Part shown: positions 389 through 64,000 of the stretch, one piece after another | How positions within the stretch are numbered: position 1 is the first letter of the stretch | How the letters are laid out: every line of letters starts with the position of its first letter | Assembly (NCBI GenBank): GCA_013115135.1 | Contig: JABANP010000122.1 | Coordinates: 62,001 to 126,000 of the forward strand | Length of the DNA stretch: 64,000 nt | DNA from: Perkinsus olseni | Taxonomy: Eukaryota > Perkinsozoa > Perkinsida > Perkinsidae | Direction: 5' to 3' | Made by a program: the position numbers and the translations under genes | The notes under the pieces: model-generated | The model's input: only the letters and a program-made list of their open reading frames with translations | Databases searched by the model: none | Told to the model about the DNA's origin: nothing

Positions 389-3300
389 TTACTTGCGCTT
401 ACCGGGCCGATACAGCGCGGGGGCTACGTCGACGAGCCACTGACTTTCTATCTGGCTGACGTGGATCATCTCGTAAGTGCCATTGTGAGCACCGGTATCG
501 ATACCGTGACTGTAGACGACGTAGTTGGGAGGCTTCTGGACGCCATAAAGCACACTCTGTTGGCCTATCATCAACCGCCGTTGACCGTCCAACAACGACA
601 CGTACTGACCGCTGCTGTTCACTTGTGCCGCAGCGTTGGCTGCAAAGGCACCGCAGATGCACCGACAGAGCGGCTCGATGTCCTCACCACAAGATTCGTC
701 AACCTTAGACTGTGCTTTGGCGGTGTCCGTACCGGAGTCGATGAGCACTTGGCAGAGCTGGCGCCGAACGACGCCGGCGATTTTCGCAGCTCGGGACATC
801 GAGCCAACGTGAACCATATGGCGATGAGCCCAGTCCGTGTCACCATCGACGGCCGTCTCGTTTTCCCGCCATTCTCGGTACACATTTATCATCGTCAGCA
901 TATCCCCTTCGTGGACCCCAAGAGAGCGCTTGCACGCCGCCAGACGCTCCCGAGTGCTTCTGCTGTGCGGCCTGGCCCAGATGGAGTCGATGCTCATCAG
1001 AGCCGCGAGTTGTATCGCTTCAAGTCGAGCAGCCATAGTCAACAGACAACAGCAGTAGTCGGGCTTGGGCGGGGCTCAGTGGGAGGAACTCAGCCGCGCG
1101 CTTGTCCGCGATGATACCATTGTCATCGATGAATCCCAAGACACGGAGCTCCTCGAGGGCAGCTTCCATGGCGCGCGCTGATGGCGGTGTGAGCCACTGT
1201 AGCGAACAGACGTTGCGAACACCGAGGGAGATGATCTGGAGTAACACCGACGAGAGGGACGGCGTCCGTGTTATCTCCGGAAGGGACTTATCAGGGAAGA
1301 TTCCGAGTGATGATTTGGGGAAAAGACGGTAACAAGTCCCCGGGCAAACTCGACCGGCACGGCCAGCGCGTTGTACTAGCTGTTCTTTGCTGCAGGGTGT
1401 TACCTAATAGAAAGACGATACTTCCGCTTCCCGCATAGCGGTCCTTACCAGAAGAGCGTGATGGTTGGGGACCACGGCGACCGCCTGCTTCACGAAGCCC
1501 GTGTCAACCACAAAGCCAATGTTAGGAATGGTCACGCCGCTCTCGGCCACGTTGGTGGAGTAGACTACTTTGCGGCTGCCTCGGGCGACTGGTTTGAGGG
1601 CCTCGAGTTGAAGACCGACTGGGAGGCCGGAATGGAGGGCGTAAGTGACCAGAGGACCACCGCCAGCAGGCCGACTGAAGAGGAAAGGCTCATACCAGAT
1701 TTCCAGCAACTCTCAGAGAGGAGCAGCGATCGTGTGGCAAACGCCGAGAAGAACCGCGGTGAAAACAGCCGCGGTAGGAAAAAGGCCCCGCATACGACTA
1801 CTGTGAACTGGTATGCAAGACGCCTTCCGATGGGCAGAGAGTCGCGGCTATTCTACCACGAACCGCTCGGTATGTAGAGGAGCATCCCGTCTACAAATAA
1901 CCATAACTATCATTTCAGAGTGGAATCCTATCACTATCATAGTGACACTATGCGGTTGATGTTAGCGCGACCTCGGTATCCAAGATTGTATCAGGGCTAG
2001 CATCAACGAGTCCTTTATACTCAACCATACACGACAGGCAGGTTTCGAAGTGTGCTAGAAAACGCTCTTCTTTGCCCCGAAAAAACCTCTACCGATTTCC
2101 TCGCCCATCGTCACGACAACTACAGAGCCACTAAACGCAGCTCCCGAAAGAGCGTAGCAGCCGCGAAGTTGCTACTTGTTATCGGTCATCCTCTCCTTCG
2201 TCAACTTCACCGCGGCATCGATCTCCTCTTGGCCAGTCAGAAACACTAGGATGTCGGCTCCGTAGGGCGGGACTGAGGGGCGACTGGGGGATGGCAGGTT
2301 TGCAAAGGGAAAAAGAGTCCTTCTAATTCACAGACCCTAGAGCGGGAACGTCTGCACTGTCCACATAATTAAGCTGTGCTCATTCTAGCTTCGCATAGTC
2401 AATTCCTGTTCTCTCCTCCACTTCTCATCTGCTCTATCGCGTGCACTATGAGCTCAGTCTACCTTCGCTGCGTTCTACGGGATAATGCACGTCTTCAAAA
2501 GGGAGTAAGACTGCTGCCTGCGTAGAGACTCAGAGGGCGCCCAATAGATACATCGCCAGACTCGGGATTGATTCTGGAGCCGCATATACGCGTGAAAATT
2601 AGTTCCATCGAGTTTGGAAGTCAGAATCAGTTCACTGGACACAGGGCAGAAGATACAACAAAGGCCGAGCCACATCAGTCGACGACGCGAAGAGACAGAT
2701 TAAAGCAACAGCATTTCTGCTGTACGAATGATCAGTAGACGTTCCAAAACCAGCAAAGAAGCCTACTTTCTTGAGACGTATGAATTCGCAACACCGTCTC
2801 GACCGCAGTCGCCACATAATTAGCGCAAGCCTCGGCAAGGTAGTGGGTGGCAACTGGATAACAACGTCCTTCCACCGACATCGTGACCACCTGAAGCCCC
2901 ACCAAACCGTGACAGCCGCCACTCTGAGATCGCCGCGCTCACCGTATCCAGCTCGCCTCCTTGGCCAACATCGGTGAGGTCGAGCACGGCGTCCCTGTCC
3001 GAGGGGATCTCGAAATCCCACTTGGATTTTCGTCGGGGTCGCTTCGCGTCGGGCCGGCCAGGACCATCTGCTTTCCTTGCCAAGATGCTTCGTGACGAAT
3101 TTCTGGACGCTGAGTGCATCTAGAGTAGCACTGGACATAATCAACCTAAAAAATGGGTGAAAAATTCCGGCGCGAATGATTATCCGAAATCTTACCTGAG
3201 TTTCGGCCGTTTTGGCATGATTCTGGTCACTAAAAGACTGAACAATAGATCCAGTTGTGTCGATCGCTCATGGAAGTCATCAAGCATGATGACACTATAC

Positions 3301-4223: not shown

Positions 4224-4239
4224 GAATATTACAGTACTC

Positions 4240-4465
4240 AGAAATCGATCAGCCGTTTCAGAAATGTGCAGAGGACTGTGCCAGTTTGATTATGCAAATA
4301 ACACTTTTCTCGTATCTAATTCATGTGATAGAGTTTGCTGATGATCTTTACCTCAAACTAAGGAGGAACCCGAACAGTGAACAAATTGAAATCGATCAAC
4401 CGTTTCGTAGAAAATACTACTGTAAAATATTACGGATCTCCAGAAATCGATCAGCCGTTTCAGAA
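4240..4465 (+). repeat. short direct repeats upstream of helicase
   Basis: A 24-bp unit starting AGAAATCGATCAGCCGTTTC occurs at 4240-4263 and 4442-4465, with a diverged copy at 4387-4406. The stretch 4224-5048 otherwise holds only short open frames of unclear meaning. Confidence 0.6.
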
Positions 4466-5048: not shown

Positions 5049-8000
5049 TTATTCGGACATCTGCGTCAGCCTCACTCCCTCTTCTCTAGATTGGTTCGCT
5101 ATCTCCTTCCTCATAACCGGCAGTAGTAGAAACGCCGCCATCAGCAGCATACCTGGCATCACCCGACCGTCCACCGGGATGCCCTGGTTCAATCCCGGCA
5201 ATGAAAACCTTCTTTTACGTGTCCATGCTCCCACGCAAAGTTGCATCTCGGGGATCCTTCCCAGCCGAGATTTTTCAGGACTCTGTATCATCGTAGACTT
5301 TCTTCGAATTCTAACTTCGAAAAAAATCGAAAAAATAACATAATCAACACAATATTGTTGGATTTTTTCGTATCCTCCAAGGTTCGAACCCCACGAGGGT
5401 CCTTTCTCTCACCTGTAAATGCAACGAAGAGCCAGGCCCAACTAGAGCCGGTTGTGAGAACCGGTATCGCCAGCTGCGTCATCGCCGCGCCAATCGATGC
5501 CACACCATCGACCAAGCCGCTCACGGACGCTGTGACGTTCGCCTCTGCATCAGCCTGACTACCCAGATCGGCGCAAACTGCGGCCGAGATCAAATTGGCG
5601 GGGCCTCCGACCTGACGAGAGAGACGAAAACTGCGGACTTGCCGCCTTCGGACGTTAGTTCGATGACGCCAATCACGAAATGAAGTATCAATATTCCAAC
5701 TCTCGTTCTGTGAGCAGACGCAGACCAGGTATGTCACCCCAGAGGGATCAGACTGGGAACGGAGCACTCCGGCCTTAGTTGATAGCACTGATGCAACGCA
5801 ACACGTAAAGATGAGGGCAATGCTCATCACTGAACGCTGCAATATGCCCAGATAGCTCAAGGAGGAATATCGATCAGCAGATCGACTCGACCTGCCGATC
5901 GAGGGCACTCGTGGTCATTCCTGCCCATGGCGGCTTTCCACTACAATACATGACAGTAGTGGAGCGGTTGATGAGTGGTTCTCTGGTAGGAGACGATAGA
6001 TGTAGGCCTTAGCGAGCTGATCCCGAGCGTCGTGGGTCAAAGCAGGGAAGGCTTGCTGTACCATCTTCTTAACTTGCACCACAGTAGCATCGATATCGAT
6101 AACTTAATCGCAGTCGAGCAACCGAACTCGCTGAGATCCCTGCACTCGGAAAGTGCAGGAACTGTCCTTGGGGGGCATTTTCCCTAGGATGAACCGAGGC
6201 CGGGTGCCCTAGGAAGCAAGTTATGGAAGGCAAGAGTGTTCTTTTAAAGGGCAGCTGACTGCCGCCGAGACCTGATCCCTGATGGCTGATGCGCAATCAT
6301 GTAGCACCCACACCGTGGGAGAGTGTCCTCCCCTCAGTAACGATGGGCATGCCCTAGGCTGCCTTGCTAGGGCGTGCGAGTACTCGATCGCTCCGACGTC
6401 GGAGCCCCTTCCATCATGATTCCACAGCCGTAGATCGTTCCACCGAAATTTTCAGAACTTGGCATGGAAATCGAAATTTCCAGAATCAGCAGCATGCCCT
6501 CTCTTTAAACGGGCCGAAAAACACAGCTGTTTCCTACCGTCGTTCGACCTAATCCATCTCGGACACTCCGACAAAGATACTTACCAGCAAGCCAGCTATG
6601 AATATTATGATGGTGATTGGTACCGCAGATCTATACGTCGAGCTGAGCGCTAGAGTAGGGATGATGGCCAGGACCAGGAACGAGGTTATAACCTGACAAA
6701 AATCTCCAGCACTGCAGAAGTAACTGAACGCTCATTTCCAGAGCATCTGCCAGACATTAACAGAACACTGCCGCTCTCAGTTCATTGAACTGAACTGAGT
6801 TCAAACTGTCGATCCCTATGGAGCTGATACTTTGCAATTCCGAGACGGAGCAAAACCCACGCCCCTAGAACTTCTCGGCGAGAAGAGCCCAAATCGATCA
6901 TACAATCGATTTCCTGCCCCTCGCCCATTTGTCAACAATGGAGCCTGCGATGACTCCACCCAAGCACTGGCCTATATCGTAAAATACCGACAGACCATCA
7001 GCCCACCCTGGATCAAGCTTGCAAACCTGAACAGAAATATCATAGTGGCGCGGGCGCTTTTACGTAGGGCCAATCGAAATTCGACAAATAATGGCGATAA
7101 GCCACTTGCCTCGCTAAGGTAGAAGGGCAGCCAGAAGAACATGGCGTAGTTGACTCCTTTTGTACAAGCATAGACCACGGAGTACCGAGCGACGAATGGC
7201 AGCCGAAAAGCATGCCATATCTCCTTCAAGCCCCCCAGTACGGCTTCCAAGGTGGGGAGTTGAGCATCGGTCGTCACCTAACATTTTTATCACGTTTTCG
7301 CGGTATAACCGTTACTGTAACGACGTTACACATTGGCGGCCTACCGTTACAGTGTAACGGTAGAGCGCAAAGCTCCCATGCCTAAGGACGGGAGTTCAAT
7401 ACCATCATGGTTCCTTGCTCGGAGCAACTTGCTCCCATTTTCGAAGAACATTGAACTTGGACTATAATGTCGATAATATCGACCACGGATACTGAGTACG
7501 ACCTCGACGTCACAGCCTCAGAGTCCCTACTCCACAGCAGCATCGCTCCGTCCTTCGTTCCGGTGTAAAGACGTAAAAACAGGCGGCAGAGGATCCGAGT
7601 TCGATAGACTATTCCCATTGCTAGTTACATTTACCGAGGCTCTACGACTGACCCGCGCGTGCACAGCCGAACGACACTACCTGCGACCCTAGAGCTTGGA
7701 CGCCATTCACAGTTGGAGGAGAATCCTTCAGCTTGAGAGAATAATATGAGAATACTACCATCAGCAAGGAAGGGCCCAGGAAAACCAGCAACACCTGAAG
7801 AGAGGTCCATGAGCAACGCGGACTAGTAGATGTACGCCGGACTGATGTTCTTCCAGTTCATACTCATCCTATCGCTCCGCTGCAAAAATGTGCTGCCTGG
7901 TTAGGATACTCCGCGCGCGATTATTATTAATACAGACTGTATTATACAGTGGCGGGTATCAGAGTCTGATAATCAGACTATCACTGGCGCGGCTCGTCTA

Positions 8001-10601
8001 GAGCACATAACCAATTGTGATCGGTGTCATCGAACCAAGTCGGAACACTCTTGCCATAGTGACTCACAGACTGTGAGTCGACTGTGACAGACTCACTGAC
8101 AGACTAACGGACTGTGAGTCAAACACAAGTGGCCCCGATCCATGAATCCATGCGAGACACTTCAAGCAGCTTTTTGCACACGCCCAATCTCTGAACAACC
8201 CCCGAGAGCGAGCATAGTGAAAACCTCAGAATGAACTCACCACAGTATAAATTTCCTATACTACAATCACCGAACGTTCCATACTCGCAATCCAGTTCGC
8301 TCGACCATCCTCTCACACCGCGTTCCCTTCAACGGTTGAAGTTTAACCCCTACTACCCCCATCTGCTTCAAGGCTGCGTGCGCCCCGGCGATACCCAGTG
8401 CCAGGGCGGCCATGAGGGCTCCAACAATGTTACCAACGCTCGCATTGCTCGACCACAAGCCGAAGAGCATACCAGAATGTGCGGGATTGACCACCCCAAT
8501 CCGGTCGTCCACAACACTGGCGGTTTCAGAATCCTCAGAAGTCTCGTCCTCCTCGGAGCCTTCAATGAGATGATGGACGGGAGCAAGCCAGTTACCAACT
8601 AGCTTAACGCAGGCTGGCCAACACAAAGATTGAACCTGCACACCATAGCGCTCAGGGAAAGGTATTTCACATGCCATCACGTACTGTATGAACCGTCAAT
8701 TACACGAATTTACACATGAATTATGAAGTTATGCTTATCAAATCCACGATATAAGCCAGTTATCCTATAGTATAGGACCTATACGCAAGGACCCCCTCTG
8801 CTCAGAAATCCTGAGTCAGGATGAACGAAATGCAAGGGCTCCCGAGCGAAGCCATGAAAGCCGAATCACGGCCTATGCAACCCACGAAACACCCGCGATT
8901 ATAGTCATAACAGTCTAACATGCAGCAACATCCCAGTAACCAGTCGAGTTTGTTAACTTGCGAGAATGTACCCCGACTCCAAACGGCCCTGCAATTCAGT
9001 TAGAAATTACAATAAACCCGTACTTCGCAGGGAAGAAGGCCAGAGAGGCGGCAAACTCAAGTCGCAGACGAGCGCCTTGGTCTTTGAAGCCCCTCAAAGC
9101 GTAGTAAGCGAGCTCAGTAAGCCCATCGCCGATCTTCTCAGTTGCCACTGGGGCTGCCAATAAGTAGGCCACGATCCTCCTACGAACCAGTCCCATAGCA
9201 CAAATGGCTTGGAGCGTACGAAGTTGCACGGTGACCTTGTCGCAGTTCGCTGCAATAGGGCTGCAGCGCATACGGTATGCCATACCGAAGCAATGTTGGC
9301 GATCCATGAACACTGCTGTTATTCTGGCTTACATCTCTACGACCATAGCTCTGACGAAAGCCAGAAGTGAGTCCGGGAGTGATTCTTGTCGCCAAACCTA
9401 ACTCCTTTCAATGCAGAGCGAGCAGCCGCTCGAAACAGCGGTATCTGTGCCCCTCTACCATAGAGAAGTACGCTATGCGAGCTCCGACCAAAGCTTCACT
9501 CCTCCTCGTACTAGCTGCACTAGACTCAGCGATGGCAACCGACCTCGTATGGGTAGCAATCTCAGGATACCTCTTCAGCGAAGCTAAGATATCGCACTGC
9601 CTCTCCGCAGGTGGGAGTTCCCCCCTCTCGCAGCACGCCCCAGTGATTAAGACTCAGTCGCCTGGATAGTCCCTCTCCTCTCGTTTTGGATGAACATACG
9701 TTGAACGTATTACGTTCACAGGTTAACAAAGCAGGGCGCCGGGACATGGTGTTTTCAAACAGTTCCTGACGAAGTAAGTCCACGCAGCCGAAGGCTCCGG
9801 CGACAATCAAACGATTTCAGCTCCAAAGGGAAGCCAACCGGGGTCTTGAACGACCCAGAATCTGATGGGACCGTTGATGTGCCTATTTTTCCGAGTCGGA
9901 AATTCCGACTTCTGGGCCAGAAGTTCTGGCAGAATACGCGGTAGGAATGACCCCCAAAATTTATCACCATCACCGTCCTGTTTGCCCTCACTACCAGGCC
10001 ATTCAGTATCCAAATAGCAAACAGCACGACCTTGAACTCCCAGTCGGGTGGCGTCCGCATCACACAGAGCAGAGCAAATACCGTCTGTGCTATCGTGGTC
10101 AAGCCCAGCCCTATGGCAAGCACGGTCGAGGCCGAGAACACGTCCCCAAGGCGGCCAGCTAAGAGGAGCCCGGACGAGTATGCAATCATGAATAGTGTAT
10201 CCAAAGCGGCCAGCGTAGAGGTCGGGAAGGCACCTGGGCGTGCATCCTGGAGTGCCTGAGACCGATACATGCTCCCTAAAGTTTCTTGCACCGCTACGGG
10301 AAGCACAAACTCACTGGGATGACGAAAACGATTTTTCGGCGAAAAAGTTTCGCATAATTTTTCAGTCAGTCAACACGCGCACTCCAAACTCTGCCCAGCT
10401 CCGAGCCTATTCCGGTCAATCTGAACCCCGAACCCTACCAGGGAGGGCTTCCCTACCCTTTACTACCGCTTTTGAATTCGAAAAGGACTTCCTCGCGGCA
10501 TGCAGGGCCGTATAACTGCAGAATGTCACCAACAAGACTCTCAACCTTTCATGATGCAGCAAAGTGATGAGCCTCGCTCGGTCATGGGTATGATCTACCA
10601 T
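5049..10601 (-). CDS. SLC37-like sugar-phosphate exchanger (major facilitator, multi-exon)
   Basis: Major facilitator transporter resembling animal SLC37 proteins, which exchange sugar phosphates for phosphate across ER membranes. Seen in order: N-terminal FCSYTALHAARKSFSNSK (about 10520, cf. the YxxYHxxRK start of SLC37), a helix pair with AGRLGDVF and ILNGL (about 10250-9990), CWPACVKLVGNW joined across a large intron (about 8630), LFGLWSSNASVGNIVG (about 8480), an acidic loop EGSEEDETSEDSE, FFWLPFYLSEASG (about 7150), GGPANLISAAVCADLG (about 5600) and a last helix ending in KEIANQSREE, stop at 5049. The start ATG at 10601 gives a short N-terminus. The Lys/Arg-bearing loops are those expected of a phosphate-linked carrier; substrate and membrane are inferred. 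Exon borders are only partly resolved. Confidence 0.75.
6778..6804. repeat. inverted-octamer scar interrupted by 5 bp, T=CAGTTCAA
   Basis: T1-7 and rc(T) are perfect. T2-8 follows after a 5-bp AACTG duplication. Confidence 0.6.
7309..7330. repeat. 22-bp inverted-octamer scar (1 mismatch), T=TCGTTACA
   Basis: Only the first base of T1-7 differs. A separate 23-bp odd palindrome (11-bp arms) lies next to it at 7341-7363. Both are in non-coding parts of the SLC37-like gene. Confidence 0.7.
7929..7950. repeat. 22-bp inverted-octamer scar, T=AATACAGT
   Basis: Perfect structure within a non-coding part of the SLC37-like gene. Confidence 0.9.
8763..8784. repeat. 22-bp inverted-octamer scar, T=TCCTATAC
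   Basis: Perfect structure in the large SLC37-like intron. Confidence 0.9.
8996..9690 (-). other. coding-like sequence inside the large SLC37-like intron
   Basis: The intron between ILNGL (about 9990) and VQSLCWP (8637) is about 1.35 kb and carries two long open stretches on the same strand. One runs about 9640-9425 (includes ASLKRYPEIATHTRSVAI), the other 9313-8996 (includes LQAICAMGLVRRRIVAYLL). A plausible exon ending VRAMVVEM with donor GTAAGCC lies between them. The composition is helical and Leu/Ala rich, vaguely like organellar helical-repeat proteins, but I do not recognise a family. It could be a nested gene, a retained fragment of another gene, or chance. Confidence 0.35.
9696..9717. 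repeat. 22-bp inverted-octamer scar, T=ATACGTTC
   Basis: Perfect structure in the same large intron. Confidence 0.9.
9909..9930. repeat. 22-bp inverted-octamer scar, T=CTTCTGGC
   Basis: Perfect structure. A 17-bp odd palindrome ends immediately upstream. Confidence 0.9.
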
Positions 10602-10706
10602 CCGAACTAAGCGAAAGACCAGTGTCGCCCAGCACACACCAAGGCCATTCTGACCAGCACTGAACAGATAGGAGGAGGCCCAGTGAAGACGGAGTTATAC
10701 GCGTCC

Positions 10707-10728
10707 GACGGTACTACCGTCACGGTAG
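10707..10728. repeat. 22-bp inverted-octamer scar, T=GACGGTAG
   Basis: Perfect structure, about 100 bp upstream of the SLC37-like start codon. No gene is seen in 10602-11066. Confidence 0.9.
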
Positions 10729-26773: not shown

Positions 26774-29700
26774 ATGGCTTCTGCTGCCGTATCCGCCAAG
26801 ATCATCGGACCAGCGCGGAAGGAGGCGGCCCGGCCGGCAAGGGCCCTGCGGAACGCCCTCGCCCCGCCGGATACGGAACTTGGGAAAAGATTGGCCTCAA
26901 TCGAGCTATCTCGGGTATGAAGCATTTTTCTCATTATGAGTTCGATTTGGTATCTTCCCTGCTTCAACTTCGATCTGTATCTTCCCTGCTTCAACCTCTC
27001 TTTGTATCTTCTCTGCTTCGACCTCGATCTAGTATCCCTTCAGCCACAATCGCATCTGCATGTCCTCCGGAGTATCGAGCTGTCTGGTCGGGGCCTATCA
27101 GTGGACGAGGCTATCTACGCCCTTCGGATTCTGGCCGCATCATCGCCTGGTGGTCAAAAGGTAGTACTGGCGGATTCTCTTCTGTGCGCTGCGCTGGAAT
27201 CTTCGGCGTCCCCTAACACGTGTCGAAGTTCCGCACGCCTGTGCGCGCAATCTTATGAGTGGTTTTCCTGTGTAATCTGTCCTTTTCTGAAGTCAATGGT
27301 AGGCGAGAAAAAATGAAAAAAAACTATCCGTGGCACATGTCTGCAAAACAACAGAGTTAGGCGAGTCCATACACGAAACTTTGTCCCAGTCGAGATCTAG
27401 GCGAAAAAGTGAGGCTGGAGGCGCGCGACCCGTAAGTGAGATTACGCGTACTGCAAGTGACGGGATAATCTGAGCTGCCAGGAGTAGTATCTGGGTAGAT
27501 GCATCGACAATCGCCGAAGAGTCTGGAAGCAACTTCACTCTTGCGATCCGTATGTTTCCTTCGCGAACTTCTCTGTCCTCTGCCGCTGCGTTCGCCCGAC
27601 TCGCTCCTCTCTGGCGTTGGAGCTAGTCGACCGGACTCGACTGGGAAGGCAAACATGAGGGAATTACAGCGTTGTTATTCGTGGGATGCAGCGCATAGGT
27701 CGGGCCCGTCAGGTCCGTCGGATAAGCAAGGATATCAAAGACCATGCGGCGTACGAGAATCTTCATGAGAGTATCGTCAAGCAAGCTACGATAATGAAGC
27801 CCTACGAGGTGGCGTTGGTCTACAATCGAGCGGTGGTAGGGTTCGCTGCATCGCTCCGCTAGATTCATGGTTTTTGTTCCTCCAGTTTCTTCGCCTTTTC
27901 CCGCTTGTTGAAGAGGAAGTCATCAGCGATGTGCTGGACCAGAGTATTGCTCGACCTCCAGCCGGACTCGCTCGCTGCGGTGAGTTCGAGGGGAAGGGGC
28001 GCTCAATAATACCGGTAGTCCTGGCCTTTTCCGCGGGCCACAAAATTGATCTGAGGTAGCTGTCTAATGCTAGGATAGTAGCTTACTGAGTAAGCCTTAC
28101 TCTTTACTTTCCTGATGGCTCGAGAAAATGCTCACAAGCTAGGTGTGAGCTGATATCGACGATTAGCTGGCGGTGATTCAATCACCGTGATTGTTGCAGG
28201 TTCTCAAGGCCTTGGCGGAGGTCCGACAGATACCCGAAGAGCGACTCCGGGCGGTGGAGCAACGCCTTCTCGCTGTAATAAGGGGGGTGAAAAAGTCCGA
28301 AATTCGAACGTTTTCGCTCATATCGTATACCATTGTTTATACTGTTGTAGGTGATACGGCGTGAAGAGGAGTACAGGGATCGAAGGTTGAAGGGGAAAGG
28401 GGAGCCCATGGCGATGCCGCCGCCGAGTCTTGGCATTCAAGTTGCGCTGCATTCTCTGCAAAAACTCGCGGCCATCCATGCCAGTCGGGTTGGGTCTGAG
28501 AACTTGGAAGGAGAATCTACCGCTCTGAAGGGGGAAAGTGTGACGAGGCAACTGATCGGAGGTAGAGGGAATATCTTTGCGCACAGCGAAGATTTTTTCC
28601 CCAGAGTTGGTACGGCGAGTGAGGACGATGGCGGCTACTGGCGATCTCGATCCTCATGACATCAGCGCCGCTTATGTGTCGCTTGAGAAGGCTCTCGGCA
28701 GGAACAACGCGGCCACGCGAGAGCTCGAGAGTATCTTAGTGACCCGGTGCGTGGCAGGTTAACCAACCTAAGATATTCGATCTCTCTCAGGGGTCTGTCG
28801 GATCTCTCCCAGATGGAGCTGGGCAGACTCGCCGACGTCGTCCACCCGGGCACGCTCTTACAGCGAGCGGTCGTGGACGAGTTCGGCGAACGGCCAAAAC
28901 TTTCGAGTACGATGTAACCATTAGAGACGAGAGTATCATCTGTGCTCAGCCGAGGTGGTTGTGCGAGCATTGAAGCTTCTCAAGCGGGTCCAGCCCGAGC
29001 GTGGAGCTACCGAGGCGGCCCTGTGGCCAACATCATCAACACCGTTCGATTCTTCTTCGCTTCGCCAGAAAACCAGAAGGCCTGCCGAATCACCGTCACC
29101 AATCTGATGCAGTTCATCGCGAATATCGACCCGATGCTCGGCAGTGCTCGGGTGGTGGGAACTCTCCTCAGTGAGACAGGAGGGTTTTTGTCGGGGGATC
29201 CGTTGAGGAAATGCAAGATATGCAAGATTTTTCCCTGCGATCTCCTCAGAGCGAGAGATTGTGTTTTCTCAGACGCGGCCATCACCAACGTCGATCGTAT
29301 CCAGCCGTCGCATCTCTTGAGGCTCCTCAGCCATCTGCATGAGATCAAATTAACGGAGGTCCATCCTTTTTATCAAGGTGAGGTCAGCTGCCACTCGGAC
29401 TGGCTCTTCGCTCTCTCCTGATTGATCATTGATATTCCTTTCATCTGATGAAGGGAAGGAGTGGTATGATAAACCATTTTAAGCGAGGAGATTGACAGTT
29501 TGTCATCGCCTATGATGTCCTGTCTGTTCAGATCGCATCGATCGCCTGATCGATAACCTCATCGGCAGGGGTCCAGAGGCCCTGCAGTACCCACTACTCC
29601 AGTTGTTTGCCTTGAAGCTGTTAGCTCGCCTAGGGCGATACGAGCCCATTTACGTCAAGGGCCTGGCGGAAATTGTTGTGTCGGACGCCCTTAAGCGAGG

Positions 29701-36226: not shown

Positions 36227-38111
36227 ATGTATTTCAACTCTGTCTTATTGGCAGCTCTGCTCGGCACAGTTGCCGGCCAGGGAACTGTTATCAGGATCCA
36301 CCAGACAAGGCTACCGTTCCGCAATGGGAGCCGAGAAGATAGCGTTCATTCTCAGCTTGGTGAGTAGATAGATTTTGTAGCATTCTTTAGCAGTCTTTTG
36401 ATCGTAGGCACTCTCAGACATATCCAGACACTGCAACTTGACGATGCTGATAATCCTGTTGATGACACGGACTTTATCTGGTTTACTTCGATAATTGCCA
36501 AGGAAGACGGTTCTGGTCTCCTCGCGACCAGCAATGGGTGAGACACAGATTGGCCTGACTCGATCAGGGTTTTGGTCTACCAAGGGCTCTCGGCTGTCCT
36601 CGTCCTCAGATTGTTCGTCGTCTTGGACCTTTCACCGTCTAACGATTATGAGTTTGATGTGGCTGCGGTGACGATGTATCCTATTCGTAATCCTGGAGGC
36701 GGGATTGAAGAATATGACGCGGTGGGTTTGACCATCAATGGCCCTTATCGCGGAGGGGGAGGAGGAGATCTTATAGTCAGTGCCACAGATGAGCGGCAAG
36801 TGCTGAGGTAGGAGATACAACTCACAACCTATTCGGCTGTCTGGGGCTTGAGTGGATCCTACTTCACGCCGATTGATACGCTCAGATTTCCCGATGGGAT
36901 TCAATCGCAACAGAGCGTTGATCTGAACTTTGGGGTTATTTTCCCTGAATGCAGTGGAGCACCGGGAGCAATATTGAGTATCCAGCCTCAACCTGCAAAT
37001 CACGTTGAAGCCTTTTTCAGAATATTCTCAGGTTCACAACGAGATCCCGTTGAATACCTGCTCATGTTCTGTAATGAACCGACTGATTCGGCTCCAACCT
37101 CAGGCTCTGGAAACACAGTCTACGCCGGCTCCGCATATGACGGGTTCGTCGCTAGGCCATTCTCTCTTGAGGTAATATGAGTCATATTCATAATGAATAT
37201 TATCATATTATATGACGGCCTGAACGCGAGGGGAGTGCGAGTCCAGTTTGAAAGTGGCGTACTTATAGTATAGCGCTATGACTCTACGCCCCGAGGCTCG
37301 TAGACCACGAGTAATAGTAGCACAATGCAAACGTTGGATTGTGGTACTATGTGCGCATCCGGCCAGGCCAGTGCGTCGTACCGCATTCGTCCCTCCCTCA
37401 GTTTGGCGAGTCGGATGGCGGTGAGCCCTTCATACCTACCGATACTGCGGAGCTAAGCAATGGCGACATCATGATTCTCTTCACGAAGTAAGTTGTTCGG
37501 TGGCTCCGTCTTTCAGCGACGATCCGCTTCCTTTGTTAAGGGAGGATGAAGATACGATGAGGATTGGTTATGTTACGAGGGACGAACTGCGGCAGGCTAT
37601 TTTTGGCAAAGGAACTTTGAGACCGGAAATCATAGCCGACCTCGCGCGGAGGGATGGGTGAGTAAACCATGACCTCTGATGCTAACTGAGTGATACACTC
37701 GATGTCCATCCAAGAAATTTGAGGCGTCCACTGAGCGTAGCTTAGTTGGAACTGCCCAGGGGCATTTCCGTACTATCGCACATCGCCGTGATCGCTCCAT
37801 CTATGCCATCACTCGCCTCTGATTGCCCAGCGACATGGCCAAGTGTGATGCTAGGTACAACATCGGTGAACAAAGTGGCCTGGCTATCCGGGAGGATCGC
37901 ACAAGCGGACGCATCTTCCTTTACATGGTGAACGACAATTACTGGGGGGTGGGTTTCGCTATGCTGATCACAGCTTTGTCATCATCATACCTCTCAGGAT
38001 TTGGGATATAACTTACTATCTACTTTCGAATGGATACCCGCAGGTCGTGAGAGTCCTGGGTGGTGCCAAATCGATGGTGTTAGATATCAGTTAGAACGGT
38101 CACGCAGATAA
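36227..38111 (+). CDS. secreted phytase-like-esterase family protein, copy B (looks intact)
   Basis: Best-preserved copy. Exons by eye: 36227-36359 (signal peptide FNSVLLAALLGTVAG, then RLPFRNGS), 36408-36537 (HIQTLQLDDADN, IIAKEDGSGLLA), 36610-36807 (FDVAAVTMYPIRNPGGG), 36853-37171 (LRFPDGIQSQQSVDLNFG, LLMFCNEPTDS), 37402-37487 (DTAELSNGDIMILF), 37517-37657 (MRIGYVTRDELRQA), about 37831-37950 (YNIGEQSGLAIREDR, NDNYWG) and about 38000-38111 (LLSTFEWIPAGR). All joins keep frame with GT-AG borders; intron 3 is 45 bp. A possible extra 54-bp intron in exon 4 (multiple of three) would also keep frame. The family is inferred as a phytase-like-esterase beta-propeller, secreted. It is paired head-to-head with copy A and nearly identical to copy E over the same exons. 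Confidence 0.65.
37174..37215. repeat. inverted-octamer scar interrupted by 21 bp, T=AATATGAC
   Basis: In the intron after exon 4 of copy B. Copy E has only the 8-mer-like stretch GTAACATGACGG here. B shows T1-7, rc(T), a further palindromic 21-bp insertion, then T2-8. Confidence 0.6.
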
Positions 38112-38208: not shown

Positions 38209-38230
38209 CGGTATGCCATACCGGGTATGG
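38209..38230. repeat. 22-bp inverted-octamer scar, T=CGGTATGG
   Basis: Perfect structure, just downstream of copy B. The interval 38112-38644 has no gene. Confidence 0.9.
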
Positions 38231-40347: not shown

Positions 40348-40369
40348 ATCATAAATTATGATTCATAAT
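40348..40369. repeat. 22-bp inverted-octamer scar, T=ATCATAAT
   Basis: Perfect structure upstream of copy C. Confidence 0.9.
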
Positions 40370-40375: not shown

Positions 40376-40397
40376 CCAACGGTCCGTTGGCAACGGA
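40376..40397. repeat. 22-bp inverted-octamer scar, T=CCAACGGA
   Basis: Perfect structure, only 6 bp from the preceding scar. Confidence 0.9.
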
Positions 40398-43365: not shown

Positions 43366-43375
43366 TTGTAGCTGA

Positions 43376-47799: not shown

Positions 47800-49076
47800 C
47801 GCTGACCACTCCGTTGTCTCTTTGCCGAATGGTCGCCATTCGATACACCCATAGCAGCTATCCCCATTCATTTCTCCGACGACCGAGCAGGAGGAGCAAT
47901 TTCTCAACCTCCCAATAGGAGCCAGAGATGATTCTTCTGCCGATGTCGTTCAGGTTGGGGAACTTTTGTACCTCGCCGGAGCAGCCAGTGCTACCGCTTT
48001 CACCGATATACGTTTGTCAGCGGCTCCGTCCAGTGCCCAGTGGAGTAGACATACGGGTCTTAGGGGCCTGCATATCATATGATGACTTCATAATGATGCT
48101 GCCGATTCTGTTTATTATCACTAATCAAGTAAGCTTTGGGACCTAAACGGCAATGAGTTGATTCTCGGGCCACTTTACATTGCACTTTACGAAAGCGTTG
48201 CGTTTGGTTGGCCGCTGCTCTTTTTCAATTCATTGGGAATGCGCGTTATGGTGGTGGACCACCACTGGTGGTGGTGGTGCTATCTCTGACATCTCGAAAA
48301 CGAATCCGGTGGAATCACCGGCTGAATGACGTGTTCACAGGACCGTATCACGGATGATCGATCCCTCATCTATCATGGGTGATCGATGACCACTTTAGTG
48401 GTTTCTGAAAGCAGTCGATTATTCATACTATAAGGAGTCACTTTCTGCTAGCACAGCTTGTGTCCTGTCTACTGAAAGTATCAGATAAGGGGACGCAGTT
48501 GCGCAGAGTGGGAGGAGCGAGCACAGTCAACTTCCACATCTTTCGCGCCTGACTCTATCTGGAGCAGTCGTCGTCACGATATTCCGACTGGCAGAACTCG
48601 GCCCTTGAAGTTCATTTGTTGAGCAAAACAAACCTTCAAACCCCAATAACTTCATGACGGTCGCATCGTTAGCATCGGTATAACGCACCCGCGCGCACCC
48701 ACTGGGTGATGCTATCACCCAGATCGAAATTGGAAGGGACGTCATTCTTTATCATTTGAGGCTTGAAGTGCGAGCCCACAGCTTTCGGCGCGAGCAAGTC
48801 ATCCGTCTGGATGGAGTTGCGCTATTGCGAGTCGCTCGAGAATTCTAAGAATCTTCGAAGACTTCGAGCTCTTCGATTTTCTTCAACAAAGAACGCCCCC
48901 AATGTCGTTAGACTATCGGCCAGAAGTGCCCGAGTCATCCAGTCCTGTAACAGACGCCGCTAACAAGTAGTTACTAATAGTAACAACCAGGGGAAGTTCA
49001 TGAGCTACTGAGAAAAACCATTTTCTGTTTGCGCGAAAAACCGCAAACTCATGGACACTACTAGACCGCTCTCACT
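47800..49076. other. interval without a supported gene
   Basis: Short open frames only. It contains the scar at 48251-48272 and an 8-3-8 hairpin near 48705. Confidence 0.4.
48251..48272. repeat. 22-bp inverted-octamer scar, T=GTGGTGGT
   Basis: Perfect structure, though within a GGT-rich stretch. Confidence 0.75.
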
Positions 49077-49268: not shown

Positions 49269-49473
49269 TGTTGCTCCTGGTCGCTCTCATAGACTATGAG
49301 TCATAGTCAACCCAACACCTTGGTGATGTAGCTTGTTGTAGTGATAATGACAAAGGGATCAACAAAAGGTATCGCACCAATCTATCTTGTACTTGCGTGC
49401 TACAGCTAATGTAAAATGCTGAAGAATCACAAGGTAACAAGTTGGTACCATACTAAGTCCGCGTACAGCAACA
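49269..49473 (-). repeat. 3' LTR of element 3
   Basis: 205 bp, 14 bp longer than its partner because of the scar at 49286-49307. Confidence 0.88.
49286..49307. repeat. 22-bp inverted-octamer scar, T=CTCATAGT
   Basis: Perfect structure in one LTR only. The other LTR reads CTCATAGC without the inverted copy. Confidence 0.95.
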
Positions 49474-51011: not shown

Positions 51012-52679
51012 TTAGACTAGGGCGTACTCCACCTTGTGCTCTGGATCATCAGCTAGAGATGGAGAGACGAAGGGACCTATAAGGTCAGCTCCCACCATTT
51101 CCATGCATATAGGGCTCTTGGCTAGAACTGTCCCCAATCCTCCGGCGCGCAACAAACACGAGCTCTTAAACTTAACGCAGGTAGCACAGTTCTTGGCATA
51201 ACGTCGAGCATCACCTGATAACCCGGGCCAGTAGAAGTCTCTGCTTAGCAACCCTGGTAACTTCGACGTACCAACATGACCGTAGACAGTGTGGATGCGA
51301 TCAACCAGACTTCTTCTGCAGCTCTGAGAGACATAGACTCGGACATGGTCGGCGATGATCGGGTGCTTCTTCACCAATACGTCACCGTTCTGGTCGTGGA
51401 TAACGTGGTACATATCCTTGTAACGATTATCATTGTGATCGATGGCCAGCTTGATGTGTGTAACCTCGTCGTCCCTCGCTTGAGCCCGACGGATTCTCTC
51501 CAAGACATCGGCGATCTCAGTAGCAGAGCACTGGTTCTTGAGATGACACAAGAGAGGAGATGCATCACCAGTAGCCGTTAAGGCCACTGGAATCTGTAGG
51601 GGATCGACCTTACCCTCGTTTATTGCCGTAATAGTCGTTCTTAGGCGCTGATAGCCGACGCCATCACTTGAGCCTCTTGATAAGCAATCAGCGGGGTTCA
51701 ACGGTCCTGGGATGAATCGCAGGGTAAGATGTAAGTCATTGGCCAACTCGATGATAGAGGCGATACATGTCCTTTCCCATGCTGGTAGATCTGGTGACGG
51801 AGCGCCATCTCGTAGCGCCTTCCTGACACGTTGGAAGTTGGCAGAATTGTCGGTGTAGACATACAACTCTCGAGTTGTTTCGTGCTTGGGGAGACTTGGA
51901 AATACTTGTTGCTTGACGAAGCTGAGACCATATCTAAGGGATAACAGTTCTTTGCGCACTATGGTCCATGGGAGATGTGGTAACTCGTGTAACATAGCCT
52001 TAGCATATACCCTGTTCATGTTACTGTCGAGAACAGAGCATCCATGAGCATAGCTGGAGCTATCGACGAAGACATGTAGAGCTTGATGATCAACTATTCG
52101 AGGTACAGGGTTGGGGCTCTTGAGGGCTTGGTAGACTTTGTAGAATTCACGATACAATGGGCCTGGTAGTAGTTGATCGAATGTGATCCCACATCGATGA
52201 GCATAACGAAGTACAAGTTTGCCACGGAGCAGGGTTTCAGCGATGGTTCCAAGTGGGTCATAAATGCTGGCAAGCCGCGATAGCGCTTCTCGAAGGGTCA
52301 GGGGAAGGACGGACTGGAAGTCATTTGAGCTGAGATTAGGGACATCACTCGACTCTAAATTGATGGGAGGGTCAACATGCTGAGAGACCGGAGACGGTAA
52401 CTCACGTATAGGCGTAACTTGAAGGCTATCCGTAAGACCAACCCACAGCATTCCGAAAGCTTTAACACGACCGCTGTGGCCCTCCTGGCATTCCTTGGCA
52501 GGATCTAGCCAGAACCCGTGAGAGCCAAAGACTAATCTAGTTTCTACAACCACAGTATCCCTAGTGGCAGAGTCATTGCTACCAACTACTAGATCATCAA
52601 CATAATCAACAACAGAGTAGTCATGGGTAACGGCCGTATGACTATATACCTCTGATACCATTTCAGAAGTGCATTGCAC
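51012..52679 (-). pseudogene. element 3 pol: YVDD motif, Pao domain, RNase H, integrase N-terminus
   Basis: Starts just before YSVVDYVDDLVVG (reverse transcriptase active site), then LSRLASIYDPLG, RNase H strands (ALHVFVDSSSYAHG, ELYVYTDNSANFQ, LNPADCLSRG) and a zinc-binding HTVYGHVG...CATC module. The first integrase Asp (MVGADLIGPF) lies near the end. It ends at a TAA near 50993, beyond which the frame stays open. 555 open codons. Confidence 0.85.
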
Positions 52680-52999
52680 TTAGTGCAATAACGAAGTATA
52701 GCGGGAGACGGCGGAAGACCCATAACTACGCGATTAAACTGATAATATGCTCCTTCGAAGTAGAAGGAGACCCAAGGCTTTGAGGCTTCAGAGAGCTGTA
52801 TCATCAGAAACGCTCTATGAGAATCTAGTAAGGTAACATACTTATAACATCTCATAGCGAGTAGGCTGGGCGTACAAGAAATAGGCTCAACATCACCTTT
52901 CGACAGCAAGTTCTGAAAGATACGACCATCAAATACTGGGCGGCAAGGAGTAGTGAGACTATCCTTGAGCACGGCAAAGTGTGGCAACAACAACTTCAC
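52589..52999 (-). pseudogene. element 3 reverse transcriptase, fingers and palm
   Basis: Contains CRPVFDGRIFQNLLSKGDVE and the first Asp in VTLLDSHRAFLMIQL, then VVMGLPPSPAILRYC. It is shifted relative to the YVDD part exactly at the scar 52667-52688. Confidence 0.8.
52667..52688. repeat. 22-bp inverted-octamer scar, T=AAGTGCAA
   Basis: Perfect structure inside reverse transcriptase coding sequence. Its 14 extra bases account for the frameshift there. Confidence 0.95.
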
Positions 53000-54231: not shown

Positions 54232-54264
54232 GTTGGTACCATACTAAGTCCGCGTACAGCAACA
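54074..54264 (-). repeat. 5' LTR of element 3
   Basis: 191 bp; see its partner at 49269-49473. Confidence 0.88.
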
Positions 54265-55066: not shown

Positions 55067-55088
55067 CTGTCACAGTGACAGTGTCACT
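55067..55088. repeat. 22-bp inverted-octamer scar, T=CTGTCACT (overlapping an older one)
   Basis: Perfect. The 15 bases before it form T1-7 and rc(T) of a second site, T=GTATCACT, whose T2-8 was used as part of the new target. Confidence 0.9.
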
Positions 55089-56435: not shown

Positions 56436-56457
56436 GTCACCAGTGGTGACTCACCAC
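56436..56457. repeat. 22-bp inverted-octamer scar, T=GTCACCAC
   Basis: Perfect structure. Confidence 0.9.
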
Positions 56458-56585: not shown

Positions 56586-56607
56586 CCGTGAGCCTCACGG
56601 CGTGAGG
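56586..56607. repeat. 22-bp inverted-octamer scar, T=CCGTGAGG
   Basis: Perfect structure. Confidence 0.9.
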
Positions 56608-61084: not shown

Positions 61085-62328
61085 GAACGATGATTATCGA
61101 GTCGCGTGTCGGAAGCGTCTGCCGGAGAAGCAATTGACAGATCATTCGTAGCGGCGTCTATATATCTAGCGTGTCGCCTCGAGCGTGTTAACAAGCATGC
61201 ACATCTGTGTCGGGATAGCCGGAAATACTATCTCCGAAACAGACACACGTTAATGTTTCCGCGGCTGCGATGTCACTCGTGCCACTATGCAACTGTTGCA
61301 TAGTTCGGAGAGATCATGCGTGACCGTGCTTAATAGACACAAAACGTGACAAGGACGGGACAGATGGCCAAGGCCTCAGGGAGTGACAGCCTTTCGCGTC
61401 ACCACCCACTCACTAACCCCTTCGGGATATTTCGGCATCGAACAAGCGTCGCAGGTATGCGGATGGAGAATTGCATCTCTAAAATGGAGGCCTTGTATGA
61501 CTAATGCTATAAAAACATAGCTACCGATAGTATCAACGCGTTGCAAACATTCGCGCAGCTTCTATCAGCAACGAGCAAGTAGACAGCAACTGTCCGAAAT
61601 GTCCAGTTACTGGACTCTACTGTAGGGTCGAATGTGCACAGCATTGACAAGCTGCTACTAGCAGCCTGCTATGATCGCTCAACTGCGGAAAGGGATGCAC
61701 GTCCGAGAAAACCCATTTGGGACGTCGGTAGCGTCGACTTCCCTCGACCTGCACTCTATTGATGCTCGGAACGTGCAGCACGAAATGTGACGTTGCGTGC
61801 TCCTCGTCTACGTGCAATGCTTCGTCCCCACCCAGCTCTCTCCCGCGAAGAGAGTCCCCTCCTCTGTTCTTTGCTAGGATTATGCCGCAACGAGAGTCTC
61901 GTCACGAGACTTCCGGTTCTCCCTGAGGACTGCGACCTCACCGGCTCTCGCACGAAACTTCGTCCTTTCAAGTACACGGCTCAGAGCCACGGGAGTCTCG
62001 TGATTACCAAACCTTCGAGATGTTCCTTGCGGATCCATGCTGCTAACCCGACCATTCTCGCGATCTTGCTTGGCAGCCTGTCGTTCGAATCGCATGTTGT
62101 ATCTATTCAACCGCTAATGTCGCGGACTCTTCAGCTTCTGCAACTTGCCTCTTTTGTGCGGATAAGGTCCTTATATGCGGACCTCGAGTATCCGATAGAG
62201 ACCGCAGCAGTCCAATTAAATGGATAAGAGTCTCCCTAATATAATGCGGCCCGTTTGTCTTCGTTCGTCCCGTTTGTTCTAATCCCCAGGGGATCGGAAT
62301 AGCTTCTCTATGATCGTAGTTCTTATTC
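61085..62328. promoter_or_regulatory. copy E version of the phytase-family upstream module
   Basis: Homologous along most of its length to 34870-36226. It differs by palindromic insertions, including the scars at 61651-61672 (T=GCTGCTAG, one mismatch) and 61889-61910 (T=GACGAGAC, one mismatch). No divergent partner gene is present on the other side. Confidence 0.55.
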
Positions 62329-64000
62329 ATGTATTTCAACTCTGTCTTATTGGCAGTTCTGCTCGGCACAGTTGCCGGCCAGGGAACTGTTATCAGGATC
62401 CACCAGCAAAGGCTACCCTTCAGCAACAGGAGCCCAGACGATGACATCCATTCTCGTCTTGGTAAGTAGATAGATGTTGTAGCCTTTTTTCGCAGTCTTT
62501 TGATCTCAGCCTGAGATTCTCAGGCACTTTCAGACATATCCAGACACTGGAACTCGACGACGCTGATAATGGCGACGACTTTCTATGGCTTACTTCGATC
62601 ATAGCAAAGGAGGACGGTACTGGTCTGCTCGCTGTCAGCGATGATGGGTGAGTCTCGCGTGTGATCAGAGTTTCGGTATATCGGCTGCCCCTGTGCTTAG
62701 GTCGTTCGCCGTCATGGACCTTTCACCGTCAGCCAATGAAGGGTTTGATGTGGCTGCGGTGACGATGTATCCTATTAGTGATCCTGAGGGCGGGATTGAA
62801 GAATATCCCGCGGATGGTTTGACCGTCAATGGTCCTTATCGCGGCGGGGAAGAGGAGACCTCATTGTCAGTGGTACGGATGACCGAGGGGTGCTGAGGTA
62901 GGAGATACAACTCAGATCCTACTCGCCCGTCTGGGGCTTGAGTGTATCCTACTCCACGCCGATTGTTACGCTCAGATTTCCCGATGGGATTCAGTCGCAA
63001 CAGAGCGCTGATCTAAACTTTGGGGTTATTTTCCCTGAATGCAGTGGAGCGGTGGAAGCCATACTGAGTATCCAGCCTCAACCTGCAAATCACGTTGAAG
63101 CCTTTTTCAGAATATTCTCAGGTTCACAACGAGATCCCGTTGAATACCTGCTCATGTTCTGTAATGAACCGACTGATTCGGCTCCAACCTCAGGCTCTGG
63201 AAACACAGTCTACGCCGGCTCCGCATATGACGGGTTCGTCGCTAGGCCATTTTTTCTCGAGTAACATGACGGCCTGAACGCGAGGAGGGTGCGACTCCCG
63301 TATGAAAGTGGCTCATTGATAGCACTGTGACTCTACGCCGTGAGGCTCATGGTGAAAGTTCTGTTGCATTTGCAATGCAAATGCCGAGCGTGCGCATAAA
63401 AGCGCTACTACGTGCGAGATCGGCCAGTGCAGACTACCATGCTATTTCGGCCAAGACCGCAATTATACATTTGTTCCTTCCTCAGTCCGGAGATTCGGGT
63501 GGTGGGAAGCCCTTCAGACCCACCGATACTGCGGAGCTACGCAATGGCGACATCATGATACTCTTCGCGAAGTAAGTTGTTCGGTGGCTCCGTCTATCAG
63601 TGACGATCCGCTTCCTTCGTCAAGGGAGGGTGAAGATATGATGAGGATTGGTTATGTTACGAGGGACGAACTGCGGCAGGCTATTTTTGGCAAAGGAACT
63701 TTGAGACCCGAAATCATAGCCAAGGTCGCGCGGAGGGATGGGTGAGTAAACCATGACCTGATACCAACCGAGTGATACACTCGATGTCCATCCAAGGGGT
63801 TCGAAGCGTCCGCTGAATACTGCCCACGAGTGATATTTTACTCAACCTCAAAGTTCTCGGACGGGCTTTGTCTCAAAAGTTTGAGTTAATATCCGTGTAA
63901 TAGTGCATCGCCGTGGTCGCTCATTGATTGATCACTCGTCTCTGGTTGCCCAGCGGCAAGGCCAAGCGTGATGCCAGGTACAACATCGGCGAACAAACTG
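62329..64000 (+). pseudogene. phytase-like-esterase family, copy E (frameshift; runs off the window)
   Basis: Near-duplicate of copy B with the same exon layout: exon 1 62329-62461 (FNSVLLAVLLGTVAG), exon 2 from 62524 (LELDDADNGDDFLWLTSII), exon 3 about 62700-62897 (FDVAAVTMYPISDPEGG), exon 4 from about 62943 (LRFPDGIQSQQSADLNFG), exon 5 near 63490 (DTAELRNGDIMILF), exon 6 near 63640 (MRIGYVTRDELRQA). The final exon is cut by the window edge. Exon 3 lacks one base relative to B near 62853, after the GPYRGG segment. This shifts the frame to an early stop unless it is a sequence error. The acceptor of exon 2 carries the scar 62503-62524. Confidence 0.65.
62503..62524. repeat. 22-bp inverted-octamer scar at a 3' splice site, T=ATCTCAGG
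   Basis: Perfect. Copy B has only ATCGTAGG at this place. The insertion re-creates CTCAG immediately before exon 2. Confidence 0.95.

What the first reader, a model, noticed from the sequence alone, without database searches (positions are those of the whole stretch)
1931..62524. A class of uniform 22-bp scars: T1-7, reverse complement of T, T2-8, for an 8-bp T
Seen directly: 19 perfect cases at 1931, 7929, 8763, 9696, 9909, 10707, 28081, 28172, 34787, 38209, 40348, 40376, 48251, 49286, 52667, 55067, 56436, 56586 and 62503. Near-perfect cases lie at 7309, 40515, 45530, 60426, 61651, 61889 and (overlapping) 55053. Cases interrupted by short duplications lie at 6778, 37174 and 47381. Fourteen positions are constrained in each, so a random 64-kb sequence with equal bases should hold about 64000/4^14, or 0.0002. 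T differs at every site, so this is a process and not a repeat family. Known mechanism it resembles: hAT transposases (Hermes) duplicate 8 bp, nick one base into the flank and close the flank as a hairpin. Reading through such a hairpin gives T1-7 then rc(T), and the other flank loses T1, giving T2-8. Ordinary hAT footprints keep only a few such bases. Alternatives: polymerase template switching, or theta-type end joining; neither predicts a fixed 14-bp gain.
Basis: partly seen in the sequence, partly recalled or inferred. Interest (0 to 1): 0.96.

Follow-up and report, generated by a model that had tools for sequence, protein, structure and literature searches.

The report
Uniform palindromic scars of jumping genes
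The DNA of a shellfish parasite, most likely Perkinsus olseni, carries many 22-letter scars in one fixed format, and where an unscarred sister copy could be compared the scar was usually exactly 14 letters longer; they likely mark where hAT jumping genes cut themselves out and the broken ends were glued by their own mirrored letters, so one genome would keep a readable log of past jumps.

Summary
The window holds 23 perfect T1-7/rc(T)/T2-8 sites (19 listed, 4 missed) against 0.0002 expected; no other arm length shows a comparable excess. The window lies in a 61.5-Mb Perkinsus assembly, most likely P. olseni. Outside its contig, 15 hand-placed 10-kb stretches hold 25 perfect scars, which extrapolates to about 10,000 per genome (bootstrap 2,000-21,000).

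Repeat copies within the genome show the event: 18 alignment gaps are exactly 14 bp, the commonest length above 4 bp, and 17 of them are scars (15 of the 18 lie in loci fetched for hAT).

T carries nTnnnnAn, the preference of the hAT transposase Hermes (p = 9e-8 at position 2), and the genome has hAT transposases and elements with 8-bp duplications.

Best explanation: hAT excision caps each flank with a hairpin one base into the flank. Opening gives 3' overhangs rc(T) and T, complementary because of the target duplication; they anneal and give exactly 22 bp. The chemistry is known. A single uniform scar class, with no excess of the ordinary hAT footprint, was not found in limited paper searches. 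No site was seen filled in one copy and scarred in another.

The parts
1931..1952 (.). perfect scar, T=TCACTATG
7929..7950 (.). perfect scar, T=AATACAGT
8763..8784 (.). perfect scar, T=TCCTATAC
9696..9717 (.). perfect scar, T=ATACGTTC
9909..9930 (.). perfect scar, T=CTTCTGGC
10707..10728 (.). perfect scar, T=GACGGTAG
28081..28102 (.). perfect scar, T=GCTTACTC
28172..28193 (.). perfect scar, T=GGTGATTG
34787..34808 (.). perfect scar, T=ACTGCAAT
38209..38230 (.). perfect scar, T=CGGTATGG
40348..40369 (.). perfect scar, T=ATCATAAT
40376..40397 (.). perfect scar, T=CCAACGGA
48251..48272 (.). perfect scar, T=GTGGTGGT
49286..49307 (.). perfect scar, T=CTCATAGT; the paralogous copy at 54074-54264 lacks exactly 14 bp here
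52667..52688 (.). perfect scar, T=AAGTGCAA, overlapping the start of the Pao-type retroelement ORF (51012-52679, -)
55067..55088 (.). perfect scar, T=CTGTCACT, overlapping the 55053 scar (12/14)
56436..56457 (.). perfect scar, T=GTCACCAC
56586..56607 (.). perfect scar, T=CCGTGAGG
62503..62524 (.). perfect scar, T=ATCTCAGG; paralog at 36201-36633 lacks exactly 14 bp
61651..61672 (.). scar 13/14; paralog at 35255-35669 lacks exactly 14 bp
61889..61910 (.). scar 13/14; paralog at 35516-35881 lacks exactly 14 bp
6778..6804 (.). variant scar: T1-7 + rc(T) + last 5 bases of rc(T) again + T2-8, T=CAGTTCAA
54074..54264 (.). unscarred paralog of the 49286 scar region
35255..36633 (.). paralogous stretch unscarred at the three 61651/61889/62503 positions

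Best explanation
Each 22-bp site reads T1-7/rc(T)/T2-8 for an 8-bp T, and it is likely the excision scar of a hAT transposon, predicted to form when both hairpin-capped flanks are opened and their mutually complementary 3' overhangs anneal. Shown: the format and its fixed length; the exact 14-bp gain for 16 distinct scars that have an unscarred paralog; the nTnnnnAn bias in T; and hAT elements with 8-bp duplications in the same genome. Inferred steps: (1) a hAT element inserts and duplicates T. (2) On excision the transposase nicks one base into each flank and closes each flank as a hairpin, so the left tip reads t1..t7-t8' and the right tip is its mirror. (3) A host nuclease opens each hairpin at least 8 nt from its tip. 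The left 3' overhang then carries t8'..t1' (= rc(T)) and the right bottom-strand 3' overhang carries t1..t8 (= T). (4) Because both come from the duplicated T they pair over 8 nt, any flap is trimmed, and the gaps are filled and ligated (microhomology or polymerase-theta type end joining). The product is T1-7/rc(T)/T2-8 wherever the hairpins were opened at or beyond the edge of T, which explains the uniform length.
For: T = 8 with one base trimmed per side gives 96 sites against 0.001 expected; no other class comes near, apart from one-base extensions of these. A format-blind test agrees: maximal 6-bp direct repeats peak only at offset 14 (176, against 41-82 at every other offset from 6 to 39). 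Arms stop at T: outward extension is 27 and 27 of 91, near chance. In paralog alignments 18 gaps are exactly 14 bp (13 bp: 1; 15 bp: 1) and 17 of the 18 score at least 12/14 (16 distinct scars, one site counted twice); one search shows alignments. T carries the hAT preference: T at position 2 / A at 7 (p = 9.2e-8), both in 19 of 91 against 5.3 expected; bias is seen only at positions -2 to 3 and their mirror (p-values not corrected for 16 positions). Hermes prefers nTnnnnAn and duplicates 8 bp (PMC10368747); hAT elements put the hairpin on the flank (PMC6900584). The genome has 21 PF05699 matches, and elements with 8-bp TSDs: L024 (TIR TAGAGATGGGCA at both ends) and L022 (that TIR with 1 and 2 mismatches). 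The 12-mer occurs 35 times against 5 for its reversed control. Three single variants with extra partial rc(T) fit P-nucleotides from hairpins. Family A DNA polymerase genes and an SNM1/Pso2-type domain are present.
Against: No site was found filled in one copy and scarred in another: searches with both flanks of the L024 insertion and the left flank of the L022 insertion gave no informative copy. Scars (~10^4, extrapolated) far outnumber recognised hAT copies (tens, lower bounds), so most donors must have left, or be non-autonomous or unrecognised. Only two distinct intact TSDs were read: both have T at position 2, one has A at 7; the L024 one sits beside tandem copies of the same bases, so its right half is weaker evidence. 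The ordinary hAT footprint shows no excess (1 against 4.7 expected), although other hosts give mixed footprints; the model needs this host to open hairpins far from the tip nearly always. Among paralog pairs, one scar (40515, 13/14) faces a 9-bp gap and one (35643, 13/14) no gap. The nuclease and polymerase are inferred. A Ku-type match exists, so end joining without Ku cannot be claimed.
Confidence: 0.8

Rival explanations
1. Same hAT excision, but the scar forms one-sidedly: one hairpin is opened at its base and read through (T1-7 + rc(T)) and the other flank simply loses T1 before blunt joining.
For: Gives the same 22 bp; P-nucleotide footprints joined by end joining are known for Ac/Ds and TcBuster (PMC5873905, passages; PMC3499496, passages).
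Against: Blunt joining of independently processed ends predicts a spread of P-nucleotide lengths (p,q). In the p,q table the p+q = 8 class has 85 sites against 0.001 expected; the others, where above expectation at all, have 1-7 sites (for example 3/0: 7 against 1.2; 0/6: 2 against 0.02), apart from the unfiltered 0/0, 0/1 and 1/0 cells (232 against 74; 30 and 21 against 19). The scar is its own mirror image on the other strand, which a one-sided route does not require.
Confidence: 0.1
2. Replication or repair template switching (short inverted templated insertions) without any transposon.
For: Template switching makes short inverted copies; PMC7954356 (start of abstract in a search listing only) treats short-range template switching in great apes.
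Against: It predicts variable arm lengths and offsets; here 96 sites have T = 8 while 9-11 have none and 7 has one. It predicts no nTnnnnAn bias and no single preferred indel length of 14.
Confidence: 0.05
3. A different 8-bp-duplicating, flank-hairpin-forming transposase (for example an unrecognised or domesticated one acting as a nuclease) makes the scars, not the hAT elements seen here.
For: Recognised hAT copies are few compared with scars, and a strict TSD+TIR search found no credible 8-bp-TSD element in the window or in the stretches taken by place (the search is insensitive, it also missed the L022 element). Kat1 is a domesticated hAT enzyme that makes hairpin-capped breaks (PMC4763223, start of abstract in a listing).
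Against: T differs from site to site with only a weak target bias, as expected of insertion, not of a sequence-specific nuclease; the bias is the Hermes one. To my knowledge (recalled) flank hairpins are known only for hAT and RAG/Transib, and Transib duplicates 5 bp.
Confidence: 0.05

Closest known systems
Ac/Ds excision footprints (hAT) with P-nucleotides in plants, S. cerevisiae and C. albicans (PMC5873905, passages; PMC1978519, passages)
   Same: Palindromic insertions centred on the complement of the base next to the transposon; hairpin opening followed by microhomology-assisted end joining. One footprint can dominate a single site: 11 of 17 in an Arabidopsis Ds study (PMC1978519).
   Different: Footprints there are mixed overall: 28 kinds among 128 in C. 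albicans with P-nucleotides of at most 3 nt; palindrome arms up to 20 nt in yeast. Here one 22-bp class built on the full TSD is the class in large excess, over many unrelated sites.
Hermes hAT transposition (PMC10368747 and PMC6900584, passages)
   Same: 8-bp TSD, nTnnnnAn target preference, hairpin on the flank.
   Different: Donor-site repair into a single fixed scar is not described in the passages seen.
mPing (Tourist/Harbinger) excision repair by TSD-derived microhomology (PMC4561436, abstract)
   Same: The target duplication supplies the microhomology that determines the repair product.
   Different: mPing is proposed to cut in a staggered way within the TSD and repair is precise; here the TSD would pair after hairpin opening and leave an inverted copy plus 14 bp.
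V(D)J coding joints (recalled; hAT link in PMC6900584, passages)
   Same: Flank hairpins opened to give P-nucleotides.
   Different: Coding ends carry no target duplication, so there is no built-in 8-nt complementarity and joints are diverse (recalled).

Membership tests
hAT excision footprint | Duplicated target of 8 bp underlies the scar | tested here: met
   T = 8 is the class in large excess; unscarred paralogs carry the site without the 14-bp insert (14 of 25 alignments; 17 of 18 gaps of 14 bp)
hAT excision footprint | Complement of the terminal TSD bases at both junctions (t8' and t1'), the mark of a one-base-offset flank hairpin | tested here: met
   Part of the T1-7/rc(T)/T2-8 format, 96 perfect sites
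hAT excision footprint | hAT target preference nTnnnnAn in T | tested here: met
   p = 9.2e-8 at position 2/7; both in 19 of 91 against 5.3 expected
hAT excision footprint | Same site seen filled by a hAT element and as a scar | tested here: inconclusive
   Flank searches of two insertions (both flanks of L024, left flank of L022) found no empty or scarred copy of the same site
hAT superfamily element (in this genome) | Transposase with hAT dimerisation domain | tested here: met
   PF05699 at 21 places, 21 of 21 over cut-off; DUF4371 plus Dimer_Tnp_hAT in the L027 ORF
hAT superfamily element (in this genome) | Short TIRs with 8-bp TSD | tested here: met
   L022 982-2845 TSD GTCTGATG; L024 537-1967 TSD GTCCGGAG (beside tandem copies of it); L035 7 of 8, a related copy in the same flanks; a further row in L045 is doubtful
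hAT superfamily element (in this genome) | Biochemical flank-hairpin formation by this transposase | not testable with these tools
   Needs an assay

The most novel reading that the evidence does not exclude
Perkinsus resolves practically every hAT excision by one deterministic route, full-length annealing of the two hairpin-derived copies of the target duplication, so that about ten thousand format-perfect 22-bp scars in a single genome form a cumulative, datable log of transposition and are the dominant mid-sized insertion mutation in its repeat DNA.
Probability: 0.6. Interest if true: 0.85.

Novelty: new variant of a known kind. Interest (0 to 1): 0.77.

Why it matters
Reported hAT footprints are mixed (PMC5873905, passages) and in general can be recognised only against an unexcised reference (my judgement). 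A uniform, self-identifying scar would let past jumps be counted, dated by decay and mapped by target preference from one genome sequence. It would also give a natural test of how hairpin-capped breaks are opened and joined in an alveolate, a step shared with V(D)J recombination. The 14-bp gain is not a multiple of three, so a scar in a coding region shifts the frame; in the repeat copies compared here, mostly hAT-related, it is the commonest insertion above 4 bp.

Tried and rejected
Footprint classes T1-7 + p bases + q bases of rc(T) + T2-8 were tabulated for p,q = 0-8 against a uniform-base expectation: p+q = 8 (one class seen in nine cells) is the only large excess. The p = q = 0 class shows 232 against 74 without a low-complexity filter; the filtered direct-repeat test shows no clear excess at offset 6 (65) or 8 (46). 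A strict search for TSD+TIR elements in the held sequences found five 8-bp rows: one credible hAT (L024); two rows are one large inverted repeat, and two I judge chance. It missed L022 and L035, so it is insensitive. Loss of Ku as the reason for microhomology repair was considered and dropped: one Ku match over 43 of 190 positions is present and nearby ORF fragments look Ku-like to me (by eye). Scar density against long-ORF coverage in 26 stretches: no correlation (Spearman 0.14, p = 0.5), so 'gene-poor regions only' is not supported. An introner link was looked for: the one paper found concerns Amoebophrya, with 3-5-nt direct repeats (PMC7789003, passages), and does not match. Flanks of hAT insertions gave no informative empty or scarred copy. 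The L027 transposase matches solved structures only weakly (Hermes, E = 0.7). Paper searches listed no report of this scar that I recognised from titles and abstract starts; many subscription papers are not held, including Yu et al. 2004, so this is a limited negative.
Full report
WHAT THE WINDOW IS. The window is bases 62001-126000 of contig C27 of a 61.48-Mb, 968-contig assembly. The ITFG1-type ORF at 24642-26561 is 87% identical to a Perkinsus chesapeaki protein. A hAT transposase ORF in L027 is 95% identical over 74% of its length to P. olseni FOZ60_016047, which lies on a contig of 15,660 bases; contig C816 here, which also carries a hAT match, has exactly that length. The organism is therefore most likely Perkinsus olseni, an alveolate parasite of shellfish (the lifestyle is recalled). 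The species name is inferred from these matches.

OBSERVATION. The 19 listed perfect sites are correct, and four more exist (7957, 9888, 38582, 59390), giving 23. One shuffle of the held sequence gives none at 12 or more of 14. In 323,219 held bases there are 96 perfect sites for T = 8 with one base trimmed on each side; T = 9, 10 and 11 give none, T = 7 one, T = 6 three (0.3 expected) and T = 5 fifteen (4.9 expected). The window's 9/1/3 and 9/3/1 sites are 8-bp scars whose arms extend one base; over 91 scars the arms extend at 27 and 27, near chance. Three short, heavily trimmed classes are also above chance in the window (7-10 against about 1) and are only partly explained by overlap with scars. 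A test that assumes no format, counting maximal 6-bp direct repeats by offset, shows a single peak at offset 14 (176 against 41-82 elsewhere).

EVENT SHOWN BY PARALOGS. Repeats held in more than one copy let the before-and-after states be read inside one genome. For scars of at least 13/14 that fall in repeats, 25 alignments span a scar. In 14 of these (12 distinct scars) the other copy lacks exactly 14 bp at the scar. In 8 the scar is shared by both copies (L022/L031, L024/L035). One (40515) shows a 9-bp gap, one (35643) is ungapped and degenerate in the other copy, and one is a partial alignment. Across paralog alignments passing the filters (identity at least 75%, length at least 150, 20 of 25 matches on each side of the gap), 18 gaps are 14 bp long, and 17 of these are scars of at least 12/14 (one site counted twice). 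The next commonest lengths above 4 bp are 6 (8 cases) and 7 (7 cases). Fifteen of the 18 lie in loci that I had fetched for hAT domains or the TIR motif, so this sample leans towards hAT-related repeats. Where it can be seen, then, the process adds exactly 14 bp to a pre-existing 8-bp T.

TARGET PREFERENCE. Among 91 distinct perfect scars, T in the strand-symmetrised profile favours T at position 2 and A at position 7 (p = 9.2e-8, not corrected for the 16 positions tested). Both occur in 19 of 91 against 5.3 expected, and 6% of random 8-mers in the same loci have both. Weaker bias lies at -2 to 1 and at 3 (p 0.001-0.04). At the positions tested outside these, p is 0.12 or more. This is the nTnnnnAn preference reported for Hermes (PMC10368747, passage).

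hAT ELEMENTS IN THE GENOME. PF05699 matches 21 places, all 21 over cut-off and a lower bound. L027 joins DUF4371 and the hAT dimerisation domain. L024 (TIR TAGAGATGGGCA at both ends) and L022 (the same TIR with 1 and 2 mismatches) have exact 8-bp duplications; L035, a related copy in the same flanks, has 7 of 8. The right-hand L024 duplication sits in tandem copies of the same bases. Scars also lie inside hAT copies themselves (L021 989; L022 2563 and 2662, shared with L031), so a scarred element was copied afterwards.

MECHANISM. With T duplicated on both sides of a hAT element, a nick one base into each flank and hairpin closure gives left t1..t7-t8't7'.. and its mirror on the right. If each hairpin is opened 8 or more nt from the tip, the left 3' overhang carries rc(T) and the right 3' overhang, on the other strand, carries T. 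These are perfect complements. Annealing, flap trimming, fill-in and ligation give t1..t7 / t8'..t1' / t2..t8. The length is fixed by the target duplication, not by where the nuclease cut, which would explain why one class dominates. The ordinary hAT footprint T1-7 t8' t1' T2-8 is not in excess (1 against 4.7 expected). Three single variants carrying an extra partial rc(T) (window 6778, L006 3886 and 8806) fit slipped or unannealed P-nucleotides. The hairpin, its opening and the annealing are inferred.

SCALE. Fifteen 10-kb stretches placed by hand on 11 other contigs hold 25 perfect scars. This extrapolates to about 10,250 per genome (bootstrap 95% 2,050-20,900), and the scars are patchy: 19 of 25 lie in two stretches. 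Scores of 14, 13 and 12 occur 85, 43 and 46 times in 304,835 bases, hAT-centred loci included, so both fresh and decayed scars exist. If excision is much faster than base substitution, many scars and few resident elements are expected; this is inference.

REPAIR GENES. One SNM1/Pso2-type DRMBL match, nine family A polymerase matches over four contigs, eight of them over cut-off, and one Ku match were found. None is tied experimentally to the scars.

KNOWN VERSUS NEW. Flank hairpins, P-nucleotides and microhomology joining are known for hAT elements (PMC5873905, PMC1978519, PMC3499496, PMC6900584; passages), a single footprint can dominate one site (11 of 17, PMC1978519), and TSD-derived microhomology is known for mPing (PMC4561436, abstract). 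What I did not find in eight paper searches is a genome in which excision leaves one uniform TSD-inverted scar that can be recognised without a comparison strain.

On holding the draft against the calls I added the window's short trimmed classes, the hAT lean of the gap sample, the tandem context of the L024 duplication, the Arabidopsis 11 of 17, and the flank strings joined in scripts.

Noticed in passing
window 42144-44432: Large inverted repeat with matching outer arms (about 2.3 kb end to end) around an ORF at 42403-43365 with no Pfam match.
   Followed up: no
window 11067-14310 and 22102-23076 (-): Three ORFs with eukaryotic aspartyl protease domains, two of them neighbours on the minus strand.
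   Followed up: no
window 51012-52679 (-): Pao-type retroelement ORF (Peptidase_A17, Integrase_H2C2) with a perfect scar overlapping its start.
   Followed up: partly
window 7929/7957, 40348/40376, 9888/9909, 55053/55067; L006 6854/6884; L007 808/830: Scars starting 14-30 bp apart, some overlapping, as if new insertions landed in or beside old scars.
   Followed up: partly
L004 8422-8466: A longer nested structure that fits the same format with a 12-bp T twice over; possibly a scar within a scar, not resolved.
   Followed up: partly
L022 982-2845 and L031: hAT copies about 99% alike over the aligned part that share two internal perfect scars, so a scarred element was copied later.
   Followed up: partly
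   Followed up: partly
window 8065, 17681-17684, 33260, 39564, 45668, 48071 and others: Short palindromic sites of the 6/1/3, 6/3/1 and 7/3/3 classes are several times commoner in the window than chance (7-10 against about 1); not explained.
   Followed up: no
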